DNA of 14,915 bases, from contig JAMOQH010000060.1 in the NCBI GenBank assembly GCA_027064085.1, positions 1-14,915 of the forward strand. Reading direction: 5' to 3'. Shown piece by piece: positions 1-14,793 of this stretch. Under the pieces are notes generated by a model. The model did not search any database. It was not told where the DNA came from and worked only from the letters and a program-made list of their open reading frames with translations. The first letter of the stretch is position 1. Every line of letters starts with the position of its first letter. This DNA comes from a bacterium (GTDB lineage Bacteria; UBP6; JAFGXH01). A program made the position numbers and the translations under genes.

Positions 1-2486
1 AAAAAATAGAAATATCACCTAAAATATATATTTATATAATCCCTGATGAAAAGAGTAGAAAAGGTTTATTAAAAATTGGTTTTACAACAAGATCTGTACA
101 AAAAAGAATTGATGAACAACTTAAAACAAGTGGTGTAAGGTATGAAATACTATTAGTTGAACCTGCTATGAAAAATGATGGTAGCTCTTTTACAGATCAT
201 GATATCCATAGATATTTAAGAAAAAAAGGATTTAAAAACCCTGATGGTGAATGGTTTAAGTGTACTGTAAATGATGTAAAATCTGCAATTGTTGCAATTA
301 AAGAAAATAAATTAAATGAAGAAAACAGATTTTTAGATTTTAAAATGCGTCCTGAACAAGAAAATGCTGTTAATAAAACCATTCAATACTTTAAAAGCTT
401 TAAAGAAGATGAAGAAAATAAAGAAAAAACTCCAAGATTTTTATGGAATGCCAAAATGCGTTTTGGTAAAACTTTTGCAACTTATAAATTAGCAAAAAAA
501 ATGAATTGGAATAAAATTTTAGTATTGACATTTAAACCAGCCGTTCAAAGTGCATGGAAAGAAGATCTAATGACTCATGTTGATTTTGAAGGATGGCAAT
601 TTATTTCAAAAAAAGACTTATCATATGAAGATTCTAATAAAGATAAACCTATAGTTTGCTTTGGATCATTTCAGGATTACTTAGGAAAAAATAAAGCTGG
701 TGGAATAAAGCCAAAAAATGAATGGGTTCATACTATTAACTGGGATTGTGTAATTTTTGATGAATATCATTATGGAGCCTGGAGAGAAAATGCAAAAGAG
801 CTTTTTGAAGGTGAAGATGATAAAAAAGAAATAGATTTTGCAACAGGAAAACAAGAAGGTCGTGATTATTTTGATGAAGAAGTTATGCCTATAACAACAG
901 ATGGATTTTTATATCTTTCGGGTACACCTTTTAGAGCTATTACTTCAGGTGAATTTATTGAAGAACAAATCTTTAATTGGACTTATTCAGATGAACAAAA
1001 AGCAAAAGAAAACTGGAAAGAAAAAGATAATCCTTATTCTGCTTTACCTAAAATGATAATGCTTACTTATCAAATGCCTGATACAATAAGAGAAATTGCA
1101 CTTGATGGAGAATATAATGAATTTGATCTAAATGTTTTTTTTAAAGCAGAAACCATCAATGATGATAATGAAACGGCAAAATTTAAACTTGAAACGGAAG
1201 TTCAAAAGTGGTTAGATTTAATAAGAGGTGGATTTAAAGAAACAACTTTAGATAATCTTAAACTTGGTGCTAAAAAACCACCAATGCCATTTTCAGATTC
1301 AAGACTACTTGATATACTAAATCATACTTTTTGGTTTTTACCATCAGTTGCTTCATGTTATGCTATGAGAAATTTAATATCTCAAAAACAAAATATATTT
1401 TATCATGATTATAAAGTTATAGTTGCTGCAGGAAAAAAAGCTGGTATTGGTGTTGAAGCTTTACCTCCTGTTTTAAATGCAATGGATAACCCACTTGAAA
1501 GTAAAACAATCACCTTATCTTGTGGTAAATTAACAACTGGTGTTTCTGTTAAACCGTGGGCTGGTATTTTCATGCTTAGAAATTTATCAAGCCCTGAAAC
1601 TTATTTTCAGGCTGCATTTAGAGTTCAAACACCATGGATAATTAAAAACCCTGATGATAAATCACCAAATAAAACTGAAATTGTTAAAAGTACATGTTAT
1701 GTTTTCGATTTTGCACCAAATAGAGCCTTAGGACAAATTGCAGATTATGCCTGTCGTTTAAATATTAAAGAATCAAACCCTGAAAAAAATGTTGAGGAAT
1801 TTATACATTTTTTACCAATTCTTGCCTATGATGGTAGTAGCATGAAACAAATTGATGCTGCTGGTGTTTTAGATATTGCAATGAGTGGAACAACAGCAAC
1901 TTTATTGGCCAGACGCTGGGAAAGTGCTTTACTTGTTAATGTTGATAATGCAACACTTGCAAAACTAATAAGTAATAAAGATGCTTTGAATGCCTTAATG
2001 AGTATTGAAGGATTTAGAAACTTAAATCAAGATATTGAAACAATAATAAATAAATCAAATTCAGTTAAAAAAGCTAAAAAAGAAGCAAATGATACTCCTA
2101 TTACTCCAAAAGAAAAAAAAGAACTTACTAAAGAAGAAAAAGAATATAAAAGTTTAAGAAAGAAGATTCAAGAAAAATTAATTAAATTTGCAACAAGAAT
2201 CCCTGTTTTCATGTATTTAACTGATTTTAGAGAACATAGTTTAAAAGATGTTATCACAGTACTTGAACCAGGCTTATTTAAAAAAGTAACAGGCTTAAAG
2301 ATTAAAGACTTTGAATTATTAGTTAGTTTAGGGGTTTTTAATAGTGGTTTAATGAATGATGCTGTTTATAAGTTTAAAAGGTATGAGGATGCAAGTTTGG
2401 CATATACAGGTATTAATAAACATGCTGGTGAAGATGTTGGTGGGTATGATACTAGTATTACTAGTGATGAATATAGGAGGTTGTAA
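1..2486 (+). CDS. GIY-YIG nuclease / superfamily 2 helicase fusion, 5' partial
   Basis: The reading frame is open from position 3 to the TAA at 2484-2486 (827 visible residues), so the true start lies left of the window; the ATG at 168 is internal. Visible residues 7-90 look like a T5orf172/MUG113-type GIY-YIG nuclease: KIYIYII as first strand, LLKIGFT as the YIG equivalent, R35 as candidate catalytic Arg, then a DHxxH stretch and EWF near residue 83. A helicase follows: motif I MRFGKT (152-157), DEYH box (253-256), SGTPF (306-310), TTGVSV motif V (511-516) and a motif-VI-like YFQAAFRVQTPW (534-545) that departs from the usual QxxGR. A Lys/Glu-rich linker (about 685-727) precedes a C-terminal domain I do not recognise. 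In known families such fusions act in restriction or phage defence, cutting DNA with ATP-driven translocation, often beside a DNA methyltransferase. A methyltransferase partner is inferred; none is visible here. Confidence 0.9.
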   Translation, partial: KIEISPKIYIYIIPDEKSRKGLLKIGFTTRSVQKRIDEQLKTSGVRYEILLVEPAMKNDGSSFTDHDIHRYLRKKGFKNPDGEWFKCTVNDVKSAIVAIKENKLNEENRFLDFKMRPEQENAVNKTIQYFKSFKEDEENKEKTPRFLWNAKMRFGKTFATYKLAKKMNWNKILVLTFKPAVQSAWKEDLMTHVDFEGWQFISKKDLSYEDSNKDKPIVCFGSFQDYLGKNKAGGIKPKNEWVHTINWDCVIFDEYHYGAWRENAKELFEGEDDKKEIDFATGKQEGRDYFDEEVMPITTDGFLYLSGTPFRAITSGEFIEEQIFNWTYSDEQKAKENWKEKDNPYSALPKMIMLTYQMPDTIREIALDGEYNEFDLNVFFKAETINDDNETAKFKLETEVQKWLDLIRGGFKETTLDNLKLGAKKPPMPFSDSRLLDILNHTFWFLPSVASCYAMRNLISQKQNIFYHDYKVIVAAGKKAGIGVEALPPVLNAMDNPLESKTITLSCGKLTTGVSVKPWAGIFMLRNLSSPETYFQAAFRVQTPWIIKNPDDKSPNKTEIVKSTCYVFDFAPNRALGQIADYACRLNIKESNPEKNVEEFIHFLPILAYDGSSMKQIDAAGVLDIAMSGTTATLLARRWESALLVNVDNATLAKLISNKDALNALMSIEGFRNLNQDIETIINKSNSVKKAKKEANDTPITPKEKKELTKEEKEYKSLRKKIQEKLIKFATRIPVFMYLTDFREHSLKDVITVLEPGLFKKVTGLKIKDFELLVSLGVFNSGLMNDAVYKFKRYEDASLAYTGINKHAGEDVGGYDTSITSDEYRRL

Positions 2487-5371: not shown

Positions 5372-6604
5372 TTAAAAAGAGATAGAAACACCTGCATAGG
5401 CTGTGAATATAGTATCTGTATTTAATTCAAGACTTTCAGAGTCATCAACATCATCATCTTTATTGCTATCAGGTTTTGATAATGAAAATTTTCTATATTC
5501 AAGTTTTGCCATTGCTTCGAGTTTAAGATAATCGGTTATATTGTAATGTATTCCTAAATCTCCATTAAATTGAAAATACACCGTATTATAATCTTTAGAA
5601 ACTAAATCTTTTACTGTTGTATCTATTGCTACAAATTTAATTTCTCCACTTCCTATTTTAAAGCCTAATCTTGTATCAATATATTTAAGATTAAAAATAA
5701 AATTTGTGTAAAGGCCTATTGCTGAAAAATCAGTATCGTGTATTTCTTCATCAAACTGAGCTCCATCTATTGTTAACGAATATGGTTTGTTGTAAAGCAT
5801 TAAGAAAAAACCAGCATTATATTTAAGAAATGGATTGAAATCGTTTTTTAAACCTAAAAAGTAGTCTTTAAATAGGGTTGATGTTACAATTTTATCACCT
5901 TTATTAATTTCAACAAGTTCTTGATTATTTCCTTTGTTTTTATCTTCTCTTGGCGAATAATATTTTTTTTCTAATGAGGTAATTGTTGAGATAAAAACTT
6001 GTTCATCGTAGCCAAAATATATTTTAGCAAGTGGTGTGTGCTTACCCATAATTATTGTAAAAGGTAGCGTAACTTCTGCTAAATATCTTTCCCAGCCATG
6101 ATGTAAATTCTTCCTAATTTTAAGTAACTCTCTTTGAGATTCTAAATTAGCTCCGTAAAATGATGTTTCATAATCAAAATATATTAAATTATATAGCAAT
6201 GATATCTCAAACTTTGCAAAATTTAATTCTGTTGTATCTGTTTTAGCATTATTAATTCCTGTTGGAGTCCAATGTTGAAAGTTATAAGATGAAGCAGTAT
6301 AAAATAATTTATTTTGTTTTTGAGAATTTGATGTTTCTGAGGTGTATATCTTTTCCCAAAACCATACTGTTCTAAAATTTATTGCAGTTTTACTATCACG
6401 ATATGAATAAGTACTATAATTACTGCTTGAATTGTTATCATCATCGTCATCATCGTCATCATCGTCATCATCTTTCTTCTTTGAAGAACTTGAGTGTGAT
6501 GTATGTGAACTTGCAAAAGAGCTTAGTTTTTTTCTTGATTCTGCTTGTGTTCTTGCTGTTAATGTGATGGATATAAATGTTAATAATAAAATTATATACT
6601 TCAA
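5372..6604 (-). CDS. Secreted beta-barrel-like protein with poly-Asp tract
   Basis: The product is 410 residues starting at TTG 6604, chosen because a strong ribosome site sits just before it and because this start gives a clean signal peptide (MKYIILLLTFISITLTARTQA, predicted cleavage near residue 16-21). After the signal comes a Ser/Lys-rich segment, twelve consecutive Asp (45-56) and a Ser/Asn/Tyr linker. The remaining ~340 residues have alternating hydrophobic and polar beta-strands with many Tyr/Phe, ending in an aromatic-terminated strand (AYAGVSISF) typical of proteins inserted by BAM. An outer-membrane barrel with an acidic, possibly calcium-binding, periplasmic or surface stalk is inferred. 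No family is recognised. The 58-residue zinc protein lies 66 bp upstream on the same strand and could share its transcript. Confidence 0.7.
   Translation of the reverse strand: MKYIILLLTFISITLTARTQAESRKKLSSFASSHTSHSSSSKKKDDDDDDDDDDDDNNSSSNYSTYSYRDSKTAINFRTVWFWEKIYTSETSNSQKQNKLFYTASSYNFQHWTPTGINNAKTDTTELNFAKFEISLLYNLIYFDYETSFYGANLESQRELLKIRKNLHHGWERYLAEVTLPFTIIMGKHTPLAKIYFGYDEQVFISTITSLEKKYYSPREDKNKGNNQELVEINKGDKIVTSTLFKDYFLGLKNDFNPFLKYNAGFFLMLYNKPYSLTIDGAQFDEEIHDTDFSAIGLYTNFIFNLKYIDTRLGFKIGSGEIKFVAIDTTVKDLVSKDYNTVYFQFNGDLGIHYNITDYLKLEAMAKLEYRKFSLSKPDSNKDDDVDDSESLELNTDTIFTAYAGVSISF
6437..6472 (-). repeat. Trinucleotide/9-bp microsatellite encoding 12 Asp
   Basis: On the minus strand twelve GAT/GAC codons follow one another, mostly as a nine-base unit GATGATGAC repeated three times and then GAT GAT GAT. 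Because the unit is a multiple of three, slippage would change the number of Asp residues but not the frame. Confidence 0.9.
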
Positions 6605-6607
6605 AAT

Positions 6608-6616
6608 CCCTCCCCT
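6608..6616 (-). promoter_or_regulatory. Strong ribosome binding site that fixes a TTG start
   Basis: The minus strand reads AGGGGAGGG ending 3 bp before the TTG at 6604, with GGAGG four bases from it. This is the best ribosome site near the gene and lies downstream of the longer reading-frame start at 6655, so the shorter protein beginning MKYIILL is the supported one. Confidence 0.65.
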
Positions 6617-6670
6617 AGAATAATTATTAGACAAGGATTTTTTAATATTATTCAAAATTAATTAAAAATT

Positions 6671-6896: not shown

Positions 6897-6967
6897 GTCT
6901 TTCCTATATTCTTGATAGGATATGCTTGTTTTATAAAATTTGCAATTATTTTAAAATTCTGCTATTA

Positions 6968-6973
6968 TATAAT
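6968..6973 (+). promoter_or_regulatory. -10 element for the large lipoprotein gene
   Basis: A perfect TATAAT lies 19 bp before the ATG at 6993, with GGAGG (6983-6987) between. No good -35 is found at 16-18 bp; TTGCAA at 6940-6945 is too far (22 bp). The promoter may therefore need an activator or rely on the AT-rich upstream region. Confidence 0.45.
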
Positions 6974-6992
6974 GTTTATTTCGGAGGAAAGT

Positions 6993-8936
6993 ATGAAGAA
7001 TGTGATTTATGTTCTATTTTTAACTATTACACTTATCATGGCAGCTTGTTCTGATCCACCCATTGAAAATGTTCCTATTCCTAAAATAACTAATGGTAAT
7101 GAAATAGTATTTCCTTCAACAATAATTGGAGAATTCTCAGAAAGTGAAACTATTGAATTGAAAAATATAGGTAATGGTACATTAGAAATAAAATCAGCTA
7201 GCTTAAAATTAGAAAATGGAGAGTACGATATTTCTGATGTAAAGTCTAAAGTTCCCACTTCTTTATCTGAAGGACAATCTATAAAATTTACAATAAAGTT
7301 TACGCCTACTCAAATTGGAAAAAAACATAAAAATATACTTAAGTTTAAAATTGATGGACTGGAAGATAATTTAGAACTTGGAATTGATGCTCCTGTTAAT
7401 GCTCCAAGAATTAAATTATCACCCAGAACTTTAATGTTCTCAAATAGTAATGTTCAGTCATTTGAAATTTCTAATTCAGGTAATGCAATATTAACAATAA
7501 CGAAAGATGTTACTATCAATAGTGATAAATTTAACTTTGATGATAATTTTTCAATTCCTGCCAATACTAAATTGTGTCCTAAAGATGCAAAAACTGATAA
7601 TCCTACATGTGTAGATGGTAATACTGTTTTACCAAGAAGTATTGTTGCAAAAGTTAATTATACTGGTACTCCTGGAAGCAGTGATACAGGAAGTGTTAAA
7701 ATCTTTAATGATGGGGAACCTGGAGCAACAGTATCATTTGTTGGTTTAACTGCAGCAACTAATGTTTGCCATTTATTTATTACAAATATTGAAGATGATG
7801 TATTAGATTTTGGTTCTGTTTATATTGAAGGGGCAGGGGCTACAAAAAATATTGCTCTTATAAACACAGGTGGTGCTGATTGTACTCTTGATAGTGTTAA
7901 CTTAGTATCCGACCAAGCAGATATTTTTAATTTACAGTATTTAGATAATTATCCAGAGTTTACTACACCAATAACAATTCCTTCAAGGGCTAACTCATCA
8001 ACTGAAAATCCAAATCAATATATATTCAAAGTATTATTTAAGCCTACTGCCGAAACTTCTTATACTGGTAAACTAACTTTAAGAGGTTCAGACCCATTAT
8101 GGATAGATGCAAAAAAAGAGATTCCATTACTGGGTCAAGGTTCAAAGGCAACTCTTCCTGTTGCAAAATGTAACCCCGATTATTTTGAAGTTGAGCCTGC
8201 AATTGATAATCCTAATAATCCTATTAGTGTTATTACTCTAAATGGTTCAGAATCTTTTGATCCTAGTGGAGAAGCTTTAAGTTATAAATGGGAGAAGCTT
8301 TCTGCTCCTACAGGCTCTGTTTCTCAACCAAGAACTCCAACATCAGCAAATAGTACTTATTTTGTTGATTTAGCAGGTGAACATAAATTAAAATTAACTG
8401 TAACTAATGAATCAGGTTTATCTGCTAGCTGTGAAGTAACTGCCGTTGGAGCAACTTCTAATGCTTTACATATAGAATTATTTTGGGATAAAAATGGAGA
8501 TGTTGATTTACACTTAAAAAAACCAGGGACAGGTGATGGTGCTTGGGGTAGTAATACTGATGATTGTTTCTGGGGAAACGCTTGTAAAGGTGGATCTCTT
8601 AATTGGGGACAACCAGGTGAAGGAGATAATCCTAAACTAGATAGAGATGATATAACAGCAAAAGGTCCTGAAAATATCAATATGGATGCTCCAGAAATTA
8701 CTGCAGTAAATAATTCCTATATGGTTGGAGTTAAGAATTATAGTCACAGAGGAAATCCAACAGCAACTGTTAGAATTTATTGTAATGGTGGAGCTCAGTT
8801 TGAATACAGTATGAGTTTACCGGATGCAGGAAAATCCTTTTGGTGGGTTGCAGGAATAGAATGGACAGTAAATGGTTGTAATATTAATCCTATAAATACT
8901 GTTGGTAATTATCCAGGTGCTTCAGGAACTAGATAA
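6993..8936 (+). CDS. Large surface or periplasmic lipoprotein with anchor-D-type repeats, PKD-like and YfaP/DUF2135-like domains
   Basis: The start is ATG 6993 behind GGAGG, giving 647 residues; the longer upstream frame has no ribosome site. The signal LFLTITLIMAAC gives a lipidated C19. Residues ~30-135, 137-255 and 265-385 are three immunoglobulin-like beta repeats of the ASPM/SPD-2/Hydin (choice-of-anchor D) kind, with FxSTIIGEFSES, IKNxGNGxLxI, DFGSVYIEG and FKPTxxTxYxGxLxL. Residues ~390-485 resemble a PKD domain (LNGSESFDPSGEALSYKWEKL). Residues ~492-635 resemble the YfaP/DUF2135 domain (ELFWDKNGDVDLHLKKPG), with Cys pairs (525/531, 597/629) that could form disulfides. Such architectures are frequent in Myxococcota and Bradymonadales, mostly with unknown roles. 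It should sit on the outer membrane and bind or present something. Adhesion or sugar binding is a guess. It ends 9 bp from the opposing fxsA gene. Confidence 0.85.
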   Translation: MKNVIYVLFLTITLIMAACSDPPIENVPIPKITNGNEIVFPSTIIGEFSESETIELKNIGNGTLEIKSASLKLENGEYDISDVKSKVPTSLSEGQSIKFTIKFTPTQIGKKHKNILKFKIDGLEDNLELGIDAPVNAPRIKLSPRTLMFSNSNVQSFEISNSGNAILTITKDVTINSDKFNFDDNFSIPANTKLCPKDAKTDNPTCVDGNTVLPRSIVAKVNYTGTPGSSDTGSVKIFNDGEPGATVSFVGLTAATNVCHLFITNIEDDVLDFGSVYIEGAGATKNIALINTGGADCTLDSVNLVSDQADIFNLQYLDNYPEFTTPITIPSRANSSTENPNQYIFKVLFKPTAETSYTGKLTLRGSDPLWIDAKKEIPLLGQGSKATLPVAKCNPDYFEVEPAIDNPNNPISVITLNGSESFDPSGEALSYKWEKLSAPTGSVSQPRTPTSANSTYFVDLAGEHKLKLTVTNESGLSASCEVTAVGATSNALHIELFWDKNGDVDLHLKKPGTGDGAWGSNTDDCFWGNACKGGSLNWGQPGEGDNPKLDRDDITAKGPENINMDAPEITAVNNSYMVGVKNYSHRGNPTATVRIYCNGGAQFEYSMSLPDAGKSFWWVAGIEWTVNGCNINPINTVGNYPGASGTR

Positions 8937-13719: not shown

Positions 13720-14427
13720 CTAAAAAATATTTTTTTTACCGTCTTTAAATCTTTTTATTATTTGAGTTATTGTAGGTGGTGATTCTGATATCATATCCAT
13801 AAAAAGTTCTTGATTTTTTTTATTTTCTATTAAATTTGGGTCTAAATTATTAAAAGCAGGGTCTTTAAGAGTATATAGTTCAAAAAGCATTACTCCTAAT
13901 GAATATATATCTCCTTCTTTATTAGAAGTTTGATTATTATCTTTTTTGTTTAATGAAAATGTTCCCTTAAATATATAACTTGGTAACTTCTCAAAAAACT
14001 TGCTTCCTTCTATACAAGATAAACCAAAATCTCCAATTTTTACTTTATCATTTTTGGTAATAAATATGTTAGATAATTTTAAATCATTATGTATAACATT
14101 CCTAGTATGCATATATTGGATGCCTTCAAGTATTCTAGATAAATAGTACTCTCGTTTAGAAATGACTCTATCTGTTTTAGTTTTTAGTAGCTCTTTTAAG
14201 TCTCCAAGGTCACCGTATTCCATAGTAAAATAATTATCTTGAACTTCTTTTATCGAAATTATATTTTTATGATTAAGTGATTTAGTCATTTTTATTTCTT
14301 GATTAAACAATTCCCTAAACGGATATTTATCTATAGTAAGTTCTTTTTTTATATAAAAATTACCCTTATCTCTAATAATAGAAACTTTTGTTGAACCATG
14401 ATTTTTTATTTCTTTAACTACATACAT
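13720..14427 (-). CDS. Compact Ser/Thr protein kinase (Hanks type) with HND catalytic loop
   Basis: The product is 235 residues, little more than a bare kinase domain with no membrane segment. Visible: a weak glycine loop around 9-16, VAxK-like FYIKKEL (K27 or K28), helix-C Glu in FNQEIKM (E44), hinge MEYGDLGDL, catalytic loop HNDLKLSN (113-120, D115 and N120), DFG (133-135), a GT.S element after it, and GDIYSLGVMLFEL (172-184). The usual HRD is HND, making it a non-RD kinase. No APE motif is seen and the C-lobe is short, though all catalytic residues are present. It begins 3 bp after the roadblock stop, so the two are co-transcribed. Cytoplasmic signalling is likely; targets are unknown. Confidence 0.88.
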   Translation of the reverse strand: MYVVKEIKNHGSTKVSIIRDKGNFYIKKELTIDKYPFRELFNQEIKMTKSLNHKNIISIKEVQDNYFTMEYGDLGDLKELLKTKTDRVISKREYYLSRILEGIQYMHTRNVIHNDLKLSNIFITKNDKVKIGDFGLSCIEGSKFFEKLPSYIFKGTFSLNKKDNNQTSNKEGDIYSLGVMLFELYTLKDPAFNNLDPNLIENKKNQELFMDMISESPPTITQIIKRFKDGKKNIF

Positions 14428-14430
14428 TAA

Positions 14431-14793
14431 TTAAAATTCCTGAGCTAAACCTTCAATAGCTTTTTTTAGTAATAGTTTACCCATAGCAATATTGCCATCC
14501 TTTTTAAGATATAATACTGTATGAAAATGAACATCTCCACGACTGTAACACCTTGTAATTACTATACCCATATCAGAATCAATTTGTAAAAAATCAGCTC
14601 TACCCATTCCTATGTCTTCAGTCATGTCTTGTGCATGTAAAAGAGTGTCGTTTATTGCTGCTCCTGCTAATTCTTGATGAATACCAGAAATCATTGAAGT
14701 TCCTTCAAGCAGTTCTCCAGTTGATGTAAATACTCCACTTCCTAAGTAACCTTTGATTCCATTAAGTGTTTCTAAATGTTTTTTTAAGTTCAT
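14431..14793 (-). CDS. Roadblock/LC7 domain protein
   Basis: The product is 120 residues, one roadblock/LC7 domain from end to end. It starts at ATG 14793 behind an excellent AGGAGGG ribosome site. Helix 1 (KKHLETLNGIKGYLGSG) is followed by the strand pair GVFTSTGELLEG, then a long helix (ELAGAAINDTLLHAQDM) and closing strands (FLQIDSDMGIVITRC, HFHTVLYLKKDG), with the C-terminal helix LLLKKAIEGLAQEF. Bacterial members dimerise and often regulate small Ras-like GTPases (MglB with MglA) or sit in signalling operons. No GTPase gene is visible in this window. The gene is followed directly by the Ser/Thr kinase, suggesting that the two act in one pathway. Confidence 0.88.
   Translation of the reverse strand: MNLKKHLETLNGIKGYLGSGVFTSTGELLEGTSMISGIHQELAGAAINDTLLHAQDMTEDIGMGRADFLQIDSDMGIVITRCYSRGDVHFHTVLYLKKDGNIAMGKLLLKKAIEGLAQEF

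What the first reader, a model, noticed from the sequence alone, without database searches (positions are those of the whole stretch)
1..2486. GIY-YIG nuclease fused to an SF2 helicase with a divergent motif VI
The sequence shows a T5orf172-like nuclease (KIYIYII...LLKIGFT...R35...EWF) directly followed by helicase motifs MRFGKT, DEYH, SGTPF and TTGVSV. Motif VI is FQAAFRVQTPW, not the usual QxxGRxxR. A single chain that both translocates and cuts suggests a restriction or phage-defence effector. The C-terminal third matches nothing I recognise and could be a target-recognition or regulatory module.
Basis: partly seen in the sequence, partly recalled or inferred. Interest (0 to 1): 0.65.

Follow-up and report, generated by a model that had tools for sequence, protein, structure and literature searches.

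The report
Nuclease-motor subunit of restriction system
The gene encodes the DNA-cutting motor subunit of a three-gene restriction-modification (anti-phage) system of an already named type (DrdVI-like) that has spread across many bacterial phyla, so it is a good but ordinary new member of a known kind.

Summary
Window 3-2486 (+) encodes a T5orf172/GIY-YIG nuclease fused to an SF2 helicase. The window is a whole contig that cuts off the gene's first seven codons. Another contig of the same genome (C73) ends in the same 127 bp, found nowhere else in the assembly. Joining them gives an 834-aa protein directly downstream of two methyltransferase genes, M1 and M2, with a Fic gene further upstream.

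This matches, gene for gene, the DrdVI system of Deinococcus wulumuqiensis plasmid pDrdVI (R 57% identical). Published work records M1-2.DrdVI as methylating GCAGCC after cloning in E. [quoted passage not shown] At least 574 genomic stretches encode relatives, and 96 of 104 loci with room upstream carry M1-M2-R.

The "divergent" motif VI is the family signature: Q, F, R and Q of FQxxFRxQ are identical in all 85 sequences. The C-terminal third is the most conserved part of the protein, whereas a specificity domain should vary; the variable region lies in M2. The C-terminal third is therefore most likely a coupling domain. Its predicted helical fold has no PDB match. Cleavage mechanism, recognition site and activity are inferred, not tested.

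The parts
3..2486 (+). R gene: GIY-YIG nuclease + SF2 helicase-like motor + conserved C-terminal domain (827 of 834 aa; the first 7 codons, MNEFFPE, lie on contig C73)
1..127 (.). 127-bp contig-end overlap with the end of contig C73 (G000:C73:48452-48578); unique in the assembly; joins R to M1-M2 upstream
27..293 (+). T5orf172/GIY-YIG nuclease domain, residues 9-97; Y9, K24, G26, R35, E83 identical in 84-85 of 85 homologues
339..1748 (+). SF2 helicase-like motor, about residues 113-582 (Walker A MRFGKT, DEYH, SGTPF, TTGVSV, motif VI)
1602..1637 (+). motif VI YFQAAFRVQTPW, residues 534-545, family signature
1749..2483 (+). C-terminal domain, residues 583-827, predicted mostly helical, most conserved part of R; probable coupling/M-binding domain

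Best explanation
It is the restriction subunit (R) of a DrdVI-type split, Type IIG-like restriction-modification system, encoded M1-M2-R. Shown: the gene order and the intact reading frames; the conserved nuclease and ATPase residues; M1 has a canonical SAM-binding motif I but no NPPY; M2 is an Eco57I-type methylase with an invariant NPPYQ, an altered motif I (DPxxKSG) and a variable C-terminal specificity region; homologous M1-M2 pairs make m6A in E. coli (published). Inferred: M1 and M2 together methylate one strand of a short asymmetric site to mark self. R docks on M1-M2, probably through its conserved C-terminal helical domain. On an unmethylated site the SF2 motor uses ATP to move along duplex DNA, and the N-terminal GIY-YIG domain cuts, probably after two complexes meet or stall, in the manner of Type ISP or Type III enzymes. 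The effect would be restriction of phage and plasmid DNA.
For: R is 57% identical to DrdVI R over its whole length and M1-M2-R order is the same as in pDrdVI. DrdVI methylates GCAGCC, 6mA, IIG, cloned in E. coli (PMC6430315); DrdVI is described as 'a fused translocase and REase' whose relative carries a GIY-YIG domain (PMC4996451); [quoted passage not shown] 96 of 104 loci with room upstream have M1-M2-R. Catalytic positions of the nuclease, motif VI, NPPYQ and motif I are invariant or nearly so. The variable region is in M2, not R. Fused R-M2 chains exist in Enterococcus and in same-phylum genomes, which argues that R and M2 work as one complex. The motor model matches SF2 dsDNA motors, including Type ISP LlaBIII (Z 16.8, rmsd 4.7, 391 aligned, residues 99-627).
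Against: No activity has been measured for this locus, and I found no biochemistry of DrdVI cleavage in the papers held. The helicase Z to LlaBIII is no better than to RadD, SNF2 or INO80 motors, so translocation is inferred from the general fold. The related DnmA-YeeB-YeeC cluster of B. subtilis showed no restriction (PMC9973331), so an intact-looking locus may still be inactive. The junction to M1-M2 rests on a 127-bp contig-end overlap.
Confidence: 0.87

Rival explanations
1. The locus is a restriction-dead relic in which M1-M2 act as an orphan epigenetic methylase and R is a passenger, as proposed for B. subtilis DnmA-YeeB-YeeC.
For: The DnmA cluster has intact-looking helicase and nuclease genes but gave no restriction. 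DrdVI-like genes are fragmented in Bibersteinia. Some loci here have decayed M genes or an R split by a stop codon.
Against: In this genome all three genes are full length with every conserved catalytic residue, and R shows strong conservation across phyla.
Confidence: 0.1
2. R is a stand-alone nuclease-helicase defence effector that cuts without M1-M2.
For: R contains both nuclease and motor in one chain.
Against: R travels with M1-M2 in 96 of 104 testable loci and is fused to M2 in some genomes. The apparent orphan on pCRULAC2 turned out to have its M2 on the same plasmid behind a transposon. R has no variable specificity region of its own.
Confidence: 0.03
3. BREX-like exclusion: the methylase marks self and the GIY-YIG-helicase blocks phage replication without cutting DNA.
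For: M2's nearest solved relatives by sequence are BrxX/PglX-type methylases.
Against: None of the other genes within the stretch examined looks like a BREX component, and the nuclease residues are under strong constraint.
Confidence: 0.03

Closest known systems
DrdVI R-M system (M1.DrdVI, M2.DrdVI, DrdVI), Deinococcus wulumuqiensis NEB 479 plasmid pDrdVI
   Same: Same gene order and orientation; R 57%, M1 43%, M2 47% identical; same fused GIY-YIG/translocase; same split methylase
   Different: M2 residues 281-500 only 33% identical, so the recognition site probably differs; chromosomal-type contig here, with Fic upstream
MaeIV (M1-M2.MaeIV), Methanococcus aeolicus
   Different: Archaeal; sequence not compared here
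Single-chain GIY-YIG-helicase-Eco57I methylase of Enterococcus, Lactobacillus and Pediococcus plasmids
   Same: Same domains, preceded by an M1 gene in the Enterococcus plasmid examined; R part aligned by hhalign over 574 columns, E 4e-91
   Different: R and M2 are one polypeptide of about 1445 aa
OspHL35III / DnmA-YeeB-YeeC type systems
   Same: m6A methylase plus helicase plus T5orf172/GIY-YIG nuclease
   Different: Three separate proteins with a single MmeI-like methylase; no fusion and no split methylase
Type ISP enzymes LlaBIII and LlaGI
   Same: Nuclease, SF2 motor, coupler, MTase, TRD in that order; helicase fold match Z 16.8
   Different: One polypeptide with an Mrr-type nuclease; whether the C-terminal domain of R resembles their coupler is undecided

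Membership tests
DrdVI-type split Type IIG-like R-M system | R is a fused GIY-YIG nuclease and translocase homologous to DrdVI over full length | tested here: met
   57% identity in the alignment; tblastn residues 15-819, 55.7%
DrdVI-type split Type IIG-like R-M system | M1, M2 and R genes in tandem on one strand | tested here: met
   M1 L003:16284-16934, M2 16924-18432, R from 18434, across a unique 127-bp contig overlap; same order in 96 of 104 loci
DrdVI-type split Type IIG-like R-M system | Split methylase: M1 with motif I, M2 with NPPY and TRD | tested here: met
   M1 glutamate and both glycines of EPxxGxG 70/70, no NPPY; M2 DPxxKSG with K 70/70 and NPPYQ 70/70; Pfam Eco57I 4.5e-39
DrdVI-type split Type IIG-like R-M system | m6A at a short asymmetric site | not testable with these tools
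   needs SMRT or nanopore methylome data
DrdVI-type split Type IIG-like R-M system | restriction of unmodified DNA | not testable with these tools
   needs a plating or cleavage assay
T5orf172 / GIY-YIG nuclease | conserved catalytic Tyr, Arg and Glu | tested here: met
   Pfam 4.7e-11; Y9 84/85, R35 85/85, E83 85/85
Type ISP | single polypeptide nuclease-helicase-coupler-MTase-TRD | tested here: not met
   functions divided over three genes
Type ISP | Mrr-family nuclease | tested here: not met
   N-terminal domain is T5orf172/GIY-YIG
Type ISP | coupler domain between motor and MTase | tested here: inconclusive
   C-terminal helical domain sits in that position, but the fold search gave no credible match to anything
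MmeI/DnmA-YeeB-YeeC (OspHL35III) | one MmeI-like MTase with separate helicase and GIY-YIG proteins | tested here: not met
   helicase and GIY-YIG are one chain; two methylase genes

The most novel reading that the evidence does not exclude
The family is a mechanistically separate class of ATP-dependent restriction enzyme: SAM binding (M1, intact motif I, no NPPY) and methyl transfer (M2, invariant Lys in motif I, intact NPPY) are divided between two paralogous subunits that form one composite active site, and a GIY-YIG motor subunit is recruited through a helical C-terminal domain whose fold has no match in solved structures.
Probability: 0.3. Interest if true: 0.5.

Novelty: new member of a known kind. 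Interest (0 to 1): 0.22.

Why it matters
For this genome it identifies an apparently intact three-gene restriction system that is split over two contigs and would be missed in the window alone. For the family, the alignments show where to look for mechanism: an invariant C-terminal domain without a known fold, an invariant Lys in motif I of M2, and an invariant motif VI. The family is abundant (at least 574 related genomic stretches), yet I found no cleavage biochemistry in the papers held.

Tried and rejected
Motif VI as an anomaly: rejected, since it is invariant in the family. C-terminal third as a target-recognition domain: rejected on conservation. An orphan R on Corynebacterium pCRULAC2 as evidence that R needs M: withdrawn, because its M2 is on the same plasmid and a Tn3-type element with streptomycin-resistance genes sits between the two. 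Fold search of the C-terminal domain alone gave no Foldseek match below E 0.7 and no VIA Z above 6.5; the model is of moderate confidence (mean pLDDT 74.6), so this is not proof of a new fold, and LlaBIII/LlaGI do not appear in the list. An empty-site comparison was not conclusive: in the same-family genome G001 valS is followed by an ORF that looks like ribosomal protein L19, while here it is followed by Fic, but this is another genus and a short contig. No search aimed at LlaI-type or other named systems beyond the libraries cited.

Full report
The observation. Pfam places T5orf172 at residues 9-97 and ResIII at 113-278, both above the curated cut-offs. PADLOC's REase_MTase_IIG model matches residues 109-755 at 2.3e-35. 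Homologues cover the chain from about residue 5 to 825, so the reading is not chance.

The missing left side. The window is a complete contig, C60, of genome G000. Contig C73 of the same genome ends with the same 127 bp with which C60 begins. That 127-mer occurs at no other place in the assembly, which is what an assembler leaves at a broken graph edge. Across the join the R gene gains an ATG and seven codons (MNEFFPE), giving 834 aa. Directly upstream on C73 (locus L003) are M2 (16924-18432, 502 aa), whose stop lies one base before the R start, and M1 (16284-16934, 216 aa), overlapping M2 by 11 bp. Further upstream are a Fic gene (14511-15845) and, on the other strand, valyl-tRNA synthetase. 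C73's ValS is 70% identical to that of the same-family genome G001, so C73 is not obviously a contaminant.

What the partners are. M2 is an Eco57I-type methylase (Pfam 4.5e-39), and M1 resembles N6-adenine methylases weakly (MmeI_Mtase 8.4e-7, N6_Mtase 7.4e-6). In 70 homologues of each, the glutamate and both glycines of EPxxGxG in M1 are identical in all, and M1 has no NPPY; an [IV]FSEW-like stretch with a 69/70 Trp is conserved further on. In M2 the NPPYQ is 70/70, and motif I reads DPxxKSG with the lysine 70/70 in place of the usual glycine. The N-terminal parts of M1 and M2 are paralogous (hhalign 55 columns, E 4.8e-10). SAM-binding and catalytic signatures are thus complementary between the two subunits. 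This fits the printed term 'split methylase' (PMC10113651). That they share one active site is my inference.

Closest characterised system. On plasmid pDrdVI of Deinococcus wulumuqiensis NEB 479 the same three genes occur in the same order. R is 57%, M1 43% and M2 47% identical to those here. Fomenkov et al. 2019 list M1-2.DrdVI as GCAGCC, 6mA, IIG, cloned and expressed in E. coli (PMC6430315). [quoted passage not shown] The archaeal MaeIV is a further active member, GCACY. The sister arrangement with three separate proteins, OspHL35III and DnmA-YeeB-YeeC, is also described. So the kind is known, and this is a new member.

Distribution. At least 574 genomic stretches encode relatives. The best 80 lie at 66-80% identity in Bacteroidota, Cyanobacteria, Chloroflexota, Patescibacteria, Proteobacteria and others, and 45 viral contigs carry one. 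Only 4 of 61 taxonomically chosen relatives, the genome itself included, have a match, and neither same-family genome does. This patchiness at high identity is the pattern of horizontal spread. Of 104 loci with enough sequence upstream, 96 have M1, M2 and R in this order on one strand; four of the eight exceptions (L015, L036, L067, L092) have R starting within 3 kb of the locus end. In Enterococcus and in genomes G007 and G009 of the same phylum, R and M2 are one chain with an M1-like gene before it.

Motif VI and the nuclease. Q536, F539, R540, Q542 and W545 are identical in all 85 R sequences. FQxxFRxQ persists in relatives near 30-34% identity. The arginine of QxxGRxxR is kept as R540, while the glycine and last arginine are replaced. 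This is a family hallmark, not damage. Y9, K24, G26, R35 and E83 of the nuclease are conserved in 84-85 of 85 sequences.

The C-terminal third. Mean pairwise identity by region in R is 55% (GIY-YIG), 70% (first RecA lobe), 74% (second lobe) and 77% (583-820). In M2 it is 71% (10-110), 67% (179-280), then 37%, 32% and 45% across 281-500. A specificity module should be the variable part, so recognition lies most likely in M2's C-terminal half and not in R. R loci were chosen by closeness to this R, so the absolute values are inflated; the contrast within each protein is not affected by that. Predicted alone, the R C-terminal domain is mostly helical with two long central helices (mean pLDDT 74.6), and neither Foldseek nor VIA-align gives a credible PDB match. 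In the single-chain relatives the motor is followed by this region and then by M2, which is the place of the Type ISP coupler. I call it a coupling or docking domain; this is inference.

Mechanism. The motor model resembles RadD, SNF2-type remodellers and Type ISP LlaBIII at Z 15-19.5, which says 'duplex nucleic acid motor of SF2' but does not single out Type ISP. Type ISP enzymes recognise an asymmetric site through MTase and TRD, translocate in one direction and cut on collision (PMC5737866; PMC7049714). By analogy, I think it most likely that M1-M2 finds an unmethylated asymmetric site, R translocates with ATP, and the GIY-YIG domain cuts on encounter with a second complex. The assignment to a DrdVI-type R-M system is well supported; the translocation-and-collision step I would put at about 0.5.

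Verdict. Observation confirmed; interpretation right in kind but wrong about motif VI and about a target-recognition tail. It is an ordinary, apparently intact member of a known but little-studied restriction family.

Noticed in passing
L003:14511-15845 (contig C73, upstream of M1): Fic/DOC protein with intact HPFGDGNGR motif and a C-terminal HTH; PADLOC SoFic 3.3e-44. Possibly a second defence gene next to the R-M operon.
   Followed up: partly
L018, L019, L020, L025, L033, L041, L050, L064, L074, L076 and others, between M2 and R: About 30 loci carry extra sequence inside the operon, often with genes such as YhcG PDDEXK/DUF1016, BRO-N, and by eye RhuM-like and GxxExxY-like ORFs, resembling cargo found in Type I R-M operons.
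   Followed up: partly
L106, L107, L109, L117, L118, about 5500-5970: Viral contigs carry a short ORF between M2 and R (MVEKWIIPCNIKRFNVIEHF...) that looks EVE-like by eye; Pfam gave no hit.
   Followed up: partly
L143, L144, L146: Distant variant at about 30% identity with a short R (about 700 aa) followed by an M2-like gene and, in L144 and L146, then an M1-like gene: the reverse gene order.
   Followed up: no
L068:2677-5211 and L072:5965-8451: R is interrupted by a single in-frame stop codon between the nuclease and helicase parts.
   Followed up: no
L005 (Corynebacterium crudilactis pCRULAC2): A Tn3-family element with aph(3'')-Ib and aph(6)-Id sits between M2 and R of this system.
   Followed up: partly
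window 5372-6655 (-): Putative outer-membrane beta-barrel protein with a run of about 12 aspartates encoded by a low-complexity stretch.
   Followed up: no
window 6912-8936 (+): 674-aa protein with ASH/HYDIN-like Ig repeats and a PKD domain.
   Followed up: no
window 13720-14793 (-): Small protein kinase (Pfam Pkinase 2.5e-31) directly next to a 120-aa ORF that looks roadblock-like by eye (no Pfam hit for the latter).
   Followed up: no
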